From a bacterium (GTDB lineage: Bacteria > Verrucomicrobiota > Kiritimatiellia > CAIKKV01 > CAITUY01), in NCBI GenBank assembly GCA_037143175.1, contig JBAWZF010000005.1, positions 1 through 64,000 of the forward strand: a DNA stretch of 64,000 nucleotides, given 5' to 3'. Of the stretch, positions 22,785 to 24,141 are shown in pieces (position 1 is the first letter of the stretch; every line of letters starts with the position of its first letter). The notes under the pieces are model-generated. The model was given only the letters and a program-made list of their open reading frames with translations. It ran no database searches and had not been told where the DNA came from. Both the position numbers and the translations under genes were made by a program.

Positions 22785-22985
22785 TTATAACGTTTTCACA
22801 AAACGTTCCAGCCGAATCATCCCTTCTTCGATGTTGGCCATACTGCAGGCATACGACAGACGGAAATTGCCATCGGCCCCGAACGGTAACCCGGGTACGA
22901 CCGCCATTTTTTCTTGTTCAAGAAGTTTCCGGGCAAAATTAATGGAGGAGAGCGCAATTGCACTCACCCGCTCATTAAGTTCCAT
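22785..22985 (-). pseudogene. C-terminal remnant of a class I aminotransferase (AspC-like)
   Basis: 66 codons. From about residue 17 the product FARKLLEQEKMAVVPGLPFG, then NFRLSYACS and ANIEEGMIRLERFV, corresponds to the last 50 or so residues of aspartate aminotransferases (LLEEAxVAVVPGxxFG...RLSYATS). The PLP lysine and all the rest of the roughly 390-residue enzyme are missing. The upstream sequence is the intact double-NDK gene, whose stop it overlaps by 11 bases. It keeps an ATG with GGAG 7 bases before it, so a short peptide could still be made. A truncated relic is the simplest reading. Confidence 0.68.
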
Positions 22986-24141
22986 AATACTTCTCCACCC
23001 ATTCTTTTATTGTATCTTTTTGAACATCCACAATCTTCATTTCTCTGGCGGAGCTTTCCGCTGAGTCGGACGCATGCGCCGCATTGACCATAATATCGCT
23101 ACCGTACTCACGACGTACAGAGCCCGGTTGCGCCTTGGCGGGATCCGTGGGCCCAAGCAGATAACGAATCTTCTCAACGGCGCTAATGCCTCGGTAGATA
23201 AGGGCCAAACAATTCTCGGAACTTATGTGGGCTTTATCGGCTTCCGCAACTTCGGAGGGGCGGTAACCGGTCATAAATTTCACGATATCCTCGAATTGCC
23301 CATTTCCGGCGATGGGGCCGATATGCTCCCCAATTGCCGCTTTGGCATCCTCCGGGATGGAAATACCCAGCGATTTCTCAAGAATCTCCCCTGCCCGCTG
23401 GGCCATAATCCCCTTAAATTTGTTTTGAAGAATGGCACGCACAGGACCATAAAAATCCTCCGCCTGTGCAACCGTCATGGAAAACTTTCGAACGCCCACA
23501 ATCCGAAGTCCTGAACGGGACAACAGGTCGATGATATGGCCGGGCCGAACGCTCGGAAAACGGAAATTATCAGGTTTAATGAGAACCAGCGTCGTTTGAA
23601 CCCCTTCGGCATTGGACGAATCCGCGCTGTTGTCGATCACACCGCCATCCGAGTTGGAGTACTCGGCCCATAGGCGCAGGACCGAAGCGGCACGCTCCAC
23701 CGAAGGCGCGACCAATACGGCTGGCTCAAAATAGCGGACTGTCCCGGTCTCGTCCTCAATGTAATCCCCGTAGGTATCCCGTATGGTTTCGCCACCCACC
23801 CACCCGGCACGGAGATGGCCCGTGGCCTCGCGCACTTTCTGGATCGCATTTTCGCCTTCAAATACCAACAGAATCACACGCCGCCGAAGGCCGGTGACCG
23901 GATCAGGCGTATAGGATTTGCGGACATATTCACTCAATAAACGGGCAAATTCAGGTTCCGCCTGATTACTGTTTAACAGGGAGTCAGCATAGCGGGTAAC
24001 TAACTCCTGACTGGGGCCAAACATGCGGGCAGCCACGAGGTCAAGTCCTGTGCGACTCATCAGGCGTCCGATGACGCCGCCAGTCCTGGATTTTGATATC
24101 GTGTAAGGGTTGATTAATGCAAACGCCAGTTCCTGAGCCAT
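22975..24141 (-). CDS. Tandem nucleoside diphosphate kinase protein, first module degenerate
   Basis: 388 residues from the ATG at 24141, which follows AGGAG. Two NDK-like modules are visible. Module 1 (about 1-165) has ALINPYTISKSRTGGVIGRL and GGETIRDTYGDYI but reads FEPAVLVAPS where the active site should be, so it lacks the catalytic His. Module 2 (about 190-388) has TTLVLIKPDNF, GVRKFSMT and GSVRREYG, and its active site NAAHASDS (His near residue 356) fits N-x-x-H-x-SDS. Module 2 should exchange gamma-phosphates among nucleotides; module 1 may be structural or regulatory. Ordinary Ndk is one module of about 140 residues. Confidence 0.85.
   Translation of the reverse strand: MAQELAFALINPYTISKSRTGGVIGRLMSRTGLDLVAARMFGPSQELVTRYADSLLNSNQAEPEFARLLSEYVRKSYTPDPVTGLRRRVILLVFEGENAIQKVREATGHLRAGWVGGETIRDTYGDYIEDETGTVRYFEPAVLVAPSVERAASVLRLWAEYSNSDGGVIDNSADSSNAEGVQTTLVLIKPDNFRFPSVRPGHIIDLLSRSGLRIVGVRKFSMTVAQAEDFYGPVRAILQNKFKGIMAQRAGEILEKSLGISIPEDAKAAIGEHIGPIAGNGQFEDIVKFMTGYRPSEVAEADKAHISSENCLALIYRGISAVEKIRYLLGPTDPAKAQPGSVRREYGSDIMVNAAHASDSAESSAREMKIVDVQKDTIKEWVEKYYGT

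What the first reader, a model, noticed from the sequence alone, without database searches (positions are those of the whole stretch)
22975..24141. Double nucleoside diphosphate kinase with a catalytically dead first module
Ndk is usually one 140-residue domain. Here two diverged copies are fused, and only the second keeps N-x-x-H-x-SDS. The first keeps the fold-defining parts but has FEPAVLVAPS at the active-site position, suggesting a regulatory or dimer-mimicking role.
Basis: partly seen in the sequence, partly recalled or inferred. Interest (0 to 1): 0.5.

Follow-up and report, generated by a model that had tools for sequence, protein, structure and literature searches.

The report
Two-domain NDP kinase, one half dead
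Many bacteria of the Verrucomicrobiota phylum appear to make their nucleoside-diphosphate kinase as a fused pair in which one half carries the active site and the other half has lost it but looks like a permanent built-in partner.

Summary
The minus-strand ORF at 22975-24141 (388 aa) is two Ndk domains in tandem and the only NDK-family match in its genome. The first domain, modelled alone, is an Ndk fold (pLDDT 93). In 91 aligned homologues it never has the catalytic His, nor the Lys, Thr or Asn of the site. The second domain keeps the phosphoryl-transfer residues.

It is not a local oddity. Of 387 sampled Verrucomicrobiota genomes, 169 match the two-domain model, 122 have a canonical ndk, 2 have both. 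N and C domains each form one clade, consistent with one old fusion. The N domain is under strong purifying selection (dN/dS 0.02-0.04). Its positions equivalent to the dimer interface of ordinary Ndk are unusually conserved (0.38% of random position sets as conserved), its former active-site positions are not. This favours a built-in dimer partner over a regulator; nothing was measured.

The C domain also has a changed base clamp: a helical insert of about 43 residues, and Gln instead of Phe at the base-stacking position. Closest analogue: eukaryotic NME7, with the opposite order of active and inactive domains. The paper searches made here showed no description of it.

The parts
22975..24141 (-). 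Two-domain nucleoside-diphosphate kinase gene, 388 codons plus stop
   Evidence: only NDK-family match in the genome
23641..24141 (-). N domain (aa 1-167): pseudo-Ndk, catalytic residues lost
   Evidence: model of aa 1-170 alone pLDDT 93.0; of 50 listed structural matches 44 are titled NDK/NDPK and 6 are chains of axonemal complexes; site residues
24076..24093 (-). KSRTGG block (aa 17-22); K17, S18, R19, T20, G21 in 91 of 91, G22 in 90. Four of the six positions (18, 20-22) are equivalent to dimer-interface positions of M. tuberculosis Ndk, 17 to a trimer one, 19 to neither
   Evidence: interface list from PMC7554756 (passages)
23704..23724 (-). PAVLVAP (aa 140-146): former N-x-x-H-x-S site of the N domain, L at the His position
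   Evidence: His 0 of 91
23611..23640 (-). Linker (aa 168-177)
   Evidence: inferred from domain boundaries
22978..23610 (-). C domain (aa 178-388): catalytic Ndk
23299..23448 (-). Long helical insert in the alpha-A/alpha-2 hairpin (about aa 232-281, roughly 43 residues longer than canonical), followed by Gln282 in place of the base-stacking Phe
   Evidence: helices 232-258 and 264-291 in the model; Gln in 86 of 91
23062..23085 (-). NAAHASDS catalytic motif (aa 353-360), His356
22785..22985 (-). 66-codon remnant of the aminotransferase gene that follows this ndk in close relatives; its ATG overlaps the ndk stop

Best explanation
This is the NDP kinase of its host, built as a permanent heterodimer on one chain. 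Shown by sequence and model: two Ndk folds in tandem, one complete set of phosphoryl-transfer residues (C domain), one dismantled site in a domain under strong purifying selection (N domain), separate single clades of N and C domains, and near-exclusion of canonical ndk. Inferred: NTP phosphorylates His356 of the C domain, which passes the phosphate to NDP. The N domain does no chemistry; it replaces the second subunit of the head-to-tail dimer that ordinary Ndk forms, holds the C domain in its active shape, and makes it independent of self-association. Trimers of this chain would be pseudo-hexamers with three active sites. The reworked base clamp (helical insert, Phe to Gln) probably changes how, or which, nucleosides are held.
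For: C domain keeps K, Y, R, T, R, N, H, S, E of the site in 91 of 91; N domain has His 0, Lys 0, Thr 0, Asn 0 of 91 and keeps the Arg104/105 equivalent in 91 of 91. N-domain dimer-interface positions: mean entropy 0.73 against 1.38 for random sets (0.38% of 5000 as low); its active-site positions 1.64, no better than random; in the C domain and in 26 canonical Ndks the active site is near invariant and the dimer positions are ordinary. dN/dS 0.018-0.035 (N) and 0.026-0.039 (C) in the three close pairs. Full model pLDDT 84.1, pTM 0.84, superposes on both NDPK domains of NME7/FAP67 at once (Z 23.1, 272 residues, rmsd 3.0, against 15.9 for the best single-domain Ndk). 169 two-domain, 122 canonical, 2 both, of 387 genomes (about 53 both expected if independent, relatedness not corrected for). 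N and C each one clade, SH-aLRT 100 and 98. Four genomes of one genus carry shorter frames (332-363 aa) that keep the Pfam match over the C-domain site; in the one read, G282, about half of the N domain is missing and the C-domain site is intact, as expected if the chemistry sits in the C domain.
Against: The model is of one chain; its interface was not compared directly with the canonical dimer, and no inter-domain error table was available. The C-domain active-site loop is modelled at low confidence (block means 46 and 40 for aa 331-350). The interface positions were transferred by alignment from M. tuberculosis Ndk; [quoted passage not shown] and the 0.38% is one of nine comparisons, the only low one outside the active sites. 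The 80 named homologues were found with the C-domain patterns NAAHASDS and PGSVR, so C-site invariance among them is partly by construction; the 29-row set found by Pfam shows it independently. A genus with a reduced N domain, and a genome (G363) in which the C site is lost too, show that neither half is indispensable everywhere. Of 387 genomes 98 have no match to the two-domain model and no canonical match, so an NDK is not indispensable either. No activity has been measured.
Confidence: 0.65

Rival explanations
1. The N domain is a regulatory nucleotide sensor: it lost catalysis but binds a nucleotide or signal through conserved basic residues (K17, R19, R26, R88, R121) and turns the C domain up or down.
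For: K17, R19, R26, R88, R121, E139 and P140 are present in 91 of 91; R121, the Arg104/105 equivalent that holds phosphate in ordinary Ndk, is among them. [quoted passage not shown]
Against: The other phosphate-holding residues (Lys 0, Thr 0, the second Arg 45 of 91) are not conserved, and active-site positions as a set are no more conserved than random ones. Four of the six KSRTGG positions map to the dimer interface.
Confidence: 0.22
2. The N domain is a docking module for a partner protein, as domain B of NME7 is for the gamma-tubulin ring complex; a candidate is the aminotransferase encoded next to it.
For: An aminotransferase gene lies directly downstream in 54 of 78 named loci. NME7 domain B is inactive but needed for binding (PMC13256974, passages).
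Against: The downstream aminotransferase is of two kinds (29 and 25 loci) and is reduced to a remnant here, while the N domain stays conserved; adjacency may reflect shared regulation only.
Confidence: 0.08
3. The N domain is a decaying relic of a duplication.
For: In one genus it is reduced.
Against: dN/dS 0.018-0.035 in close pairs; invariant residues across 91 homologues.
Confidence: 0.03

Closest known systems
Canonical bacterial Ndk (Pfam PF00334 NDK; NCBIfam NF001908)
   Same: Fold of both domains; phosphoryl-transfer residues of the C domain
   Different: Two fused domains, one dead; helical insert and Phe-to-Gln in the base clamp; scores below the curated NCBIfam cut-offs (best 113.3 bits against 155)
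Eukaryotic NME7 / FAP67 (tandem NDPK domains in axonemal doublets)
   Same: Tandem NDPK domains with one active and one inactive; similar placing of the two domains in the model
   Different: In NME7 the first NDPK domain is the competent one and the second is inactive (PMC13256974 and PMC7024210, passages), the reverse of here; NME7 has a DM10 domain in front, not found here; here the gene stands in for the housekeeping ndk
Mimivirus-type viral NDK
   Same: Altered residues near the nucleotide
   Different: Single domain, hexameric, shortened Kpn loop rather than an expanded alpha-A/alpha-2 hairpin (PMC7554756, passages)

Membership tests
NDK family (Pfam PF00334) | Profile match over curated cut-off | tested here: met
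   121.5 bits against 27
NDK family (Pfam PF00334) | Catalytic His and phosphate-holding residues | tested here: met
   Met in the C domain (91 of 91), not met in the N domain (0 of 91 for His, Lys, Thr, Asn)
Canonical single-domain Ndk | One domain of about 140 residues | tested here: not met
   Two domains, 388 aa
Canonical single-domain Ndk | NCBIfam equivalog cut-off | tested here: not met
   Best 113.3 bits against 155
Canonical single-domain Ndk | Tetramer or hexamer of head-to-tail dimers | not testable with these tools
   Only single chains can be modelled
NME7 | Two tandem NDPK domains, one inactive | tested here: met
   inactivity inferred from sequence
NME7 | N-terminal DM10 domain | tested here: not met
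   The first strand of the first Ndk domain begins at residue 4, which leaves no room; no other Pfam family over its cut-off
NME7 | First NDPK domain competent, second inactive | tested here: not met
   Reverse order of site residues

The most novel reading that the evidence does not exclude
An ancient bacterial NDP kinase class in which a dead twin serves as an obligate built-in subunit and the live twin has a rebuilt base clamp, giving an enzyme with one site per pseudo-dimer and altered nucleoside preference, which displaced the ordinary homo-oligomeric Ndk in more than two fifths of the sampled genomes of a phylum.
Probability: 0.35. Interest if true: 0.65.

Novelty: new variant of a known kind. 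Interest (0 to 1): 0.5.

Why it matters
Ndk is a textbook homo-oligomer; a 2020 review says that all functional NDPKs described so far are oligomers (PMC7554756, passage), and a 2026 review says that this view is now being questioned (PMC13256974, passage). A natural one-chain pair with a single active site would let one test what the second subunit is for, and whether oligomerisation is needed for activity or only for stability. It also bears on annotation: the protein falls below the curated NCBIfam cut-offs although it is the only NDK match found in many of these genomes. The likeness to NME7, in the opposite domain order, makes a useful comparison.

Tried and rejected
Chance or artefact: rejected by recurrence in 169 of 387 genomes. 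A second normal ndk in this genome: none found (genome 95% complete, 107 contigs). Spread by phages or plasmids: the window protein found nothing in phages or plasmids at E 1e-5, and viral contigs gave one pattern hit that was no relative. These searches do not reach far: a canonical Ndk (G024) finds 93 plasmid records that the window protein does not. Whether the family exists outside Verrucomicrobiota was not settled: the whole-genome searches stayed in this phylum, and the named scan showed the best 80 of 518 loci. Which Ndk gave rise to the N domain could not be decided: the stems of N (1.74) and C (1.18) are long. The C insert is mostly absent in two families; in the tree they nest inside the C clade next to rows that have it, so loss looks likelier than a primitive lack, without strong support. 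Neighbour clustering gave no recurrent partner as common as the aminotransferase. Paper searches for a bacterial tandem Ndk: 0 papers; 465 papers, 20 listed; 8 listed; 0; 22 papers, 15 listed; 2, both on eukaryotic proteins; listings only, so a description further down those lists or outside this open-licence library is not excluded. Searches were read as listings for context. Passages, not whole texts, were read of PMC13256974, PMC7554756 and PMC7024210.

Rows dropped before counts: identical ORFs, 19 of 109 homologues besides the window, before the 91-row counts; L033, a near copy, from the 29-row alignment; rows 80% or more identical from the 62-row N-domain alignment; for the tree, 5 canonical rows and about a third of the N and C rows; L109 and L113 from the neighbour count for lack of sequence; L127 and L166 gave no usable canonical row.

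Full report
Observation. The ORF at 22975-24141, minus strand, encodes 388 aa. It matches Pfam NDK at 121.5 bits in three stretches from two domains. The second domain carries NAAHASDS, the first carries YFEPAVLVAPS at that place. Its three stretches are the only NDK matches in its genome at E 0.001 or better (genome 95% complete).

Fold. Modelled with a 29-row alignment, the full protein reaches pLDDT 84.1 and pTM 0.84. The best matches are the tandem NDPK domains of NME7/FAP67 in axonemal structures, aligned over both domains at once (Z 23.1, 272 residues, rmsd 3.0 for 6u42; such chains also lead, and names several of them as Ndk or Ndk 7). The N domain modelled alone from 62 rows reaches pLDDT 93.0. 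Of its 50 listed structural matches, Z 15.6-17.1, 44 are titled NDK or NDPK and 6 are chains of axonemal complexes, two of which names as NDK proteins. The stated refutation therefore did not occur.

Active sites. The 91 rows are the window and 90 distinct homologues out of 80 named and 29 unnamed loci. In them the N domain has no His at the catalytic position (L 64, M 11, F 9, I 5, Y 1, T 1), no Lys (N 68, T 23), no Thr, and no Asn (ungapped, the place is Pro in 91 of 91); one row, L019, has a His a few columns away. It keeps the Arg104/105 equivalent in 91 and the second Arg in 45. The C domain keeps Lys, Tyr, both Arg, Thr, Asn, His, Ser and Glu in 91 of 91. The named loci were selected with C-site patterns, so their C-site invariance is partly built in; the 29-row alignment found by Pfam gives the same invariant residues. 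Ten more divergent rows with an N domain also lack the His there. The Tyr position of the N domain is uncertain by one residue in the alignment.

The base of the nucleotide normally stacks on a conserved Phe, in a clamp made by the alpha-A/alpha-2 hairpin and the Kpn loop (PMC7554756, passages). In the C domain this Phe is Gln in 86 of 91, against Phe in 25 of 26 canonical rows, and the hairpin is lengthened by about 43 residues into two long helices. Two families lack most of this insert and also lack the Phe (five rows).

What the N domain is for. The review lists the residues at the dimer and trimer interfaces and in the active site of M. tuberculosis Ndk. Transferred by alignment, the dimer-interface positions of the N domain have mean entropy 0.73 against 1.38 for random position sets (0.38% of 5000 sets as low; one of nine comparisons, and the only low one outside the active sites). 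The trimer positions (1.38) and the former active-site positions (1.64) are not special. In the C domain and in 26 canonical Ndks the active site is near invariant (0.04, 0.02) and the dimer positions are ordinary. Of the invariant KSRTG run, S18, T20 and G21 fall on dimer positions, K17 on a trimer one, R19 on neither. [quoted passage not shown] dN/dS is 0.018-0.035 in the N domain and 0.026-0.039 in the C domain for the three close pairs (in the other pairs dS is 1.7 or more, or saturated, in at least one domain). So the N domain is selected, and more like a subunit surface than like a catalytic pocket. This is conservation evidence, not a measured interface.

Spread. In a sample of 58 genomes up to class level, the window's included, I read 48 with a long frame (341-706 aa) carrying the C-domain match, 1 with a canonical ndk only (G024), 4 with only a weak NDK-like hit and 5 with none; 29 of the 47 other genomes were read in full and have both domains. 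In 387 genomes of the phylum, 169 match the two-domain model at E 1.3e-49 or better and 122 have a canonical single-domain match; 2 have both (G117, G331); 98 have no match to the two-domain model and no canonical one, 7 of them with a weak Pfam NDK hit (handles typed from the two tables). If independent, about 53 would have both; related genomes are counted singly, so this is no significance test. Among the 169, G329 is a fragment at a contig end and G282 lacks about half of the N domain. The titles of the 80 named loci are Kiritimatiellae, Lentisphaerae, Victivallis, Verrucomicrobia of several kinds, Methylacidiphilales, PVC group and uncultured bacteria (best 80 of 518).

Origin. In a tree of 67 domains (23 N, 23 C, 21 single) the N domains form one clade (SH-aLRT 100) and the C domains another (98) (quick method). 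One fusion inherited as a unit explains this. The source of the N domain is not resolved.

Exceptions. One genus (G282, G314, G320, G346) has shorter frames that keep the Pfam match over the C-domain site (sequence read for G282 only). In G363 the C site is lost as well, and the best Pfam match in that genome is E 0.10. G174 has a changed N-domain block and HASDA for HASDS.

Neighbourhood. A match to an aminotransferase starts within 205 bases downstream in 54 of 78 named loci with enough sequence: 29 nearest to the L037 protein, 25 nearest to the L055 protein. L055 is over the NCBIfam cut-off for PRK09257 (aromatic amino acid transaminase); L037 is nearest to an aspartate aminotransferase model but below its cut-off. 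In this window 66 codons remain, about 13 from the start and 53 from the end of such a gene; the longest other match in the genome is 31% identical.

Comparison. By fold and C-domain residues it belongs to the NDK family; it is not a canonical single-domain Ndk and falls below the NCBIfam equivalog cut-offs. It is most like NME7 in having one live and one dead NDPK domain, but fails two defining features of NME7 (DM10 domain, domain order). The paper searches made here showed no bacterial tandem Ndk; several lists were cut short, and only an open-licence library was searched.

Noticed in passing
22785-22985, minus strand: 66-codon remnant of an aminotransferase gene, start and end joined in frame, overlapping the ndk stop; close relatives (L034-L036, L045) have the full gene here.
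   Followed up: partly
L170 (own genome, contig C57) 745-939: A second isolated 64-aa aminotransferase C-terminal piece in the same genome, beginning at nearly the same point of the protein as the window's remnant. Why two such pieces exist is unexplained.
   Followed up: partly
Downstream of the two-domain ndk in L034-L113: The downstream position is held by two different kinds of aminotransferase in different loci (29 and 25 of 78), as if one replaced the other in place.
   Followed up: partly
L153-L160 (frames of about 300-400 aa): A distinct NDK-like protein with a HASAS- or HLSAG-type motif and only a short Pfam match (one tested), beside the two-domain Ndk in four of these genomes and alone in four.
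   Followed up: partly
Genomes without an NDK match, e.g. G025, G040, G046, G051, G057: Several Verrucomicrobiota genomes over 90% complete show no NDK family match at E 0.001; what supplies NTPs there is unknown.
   Followed up: no
L139 (G363): A two-domain homologue in which both active sites are lost while the frame stays open.
   Followed up: partly
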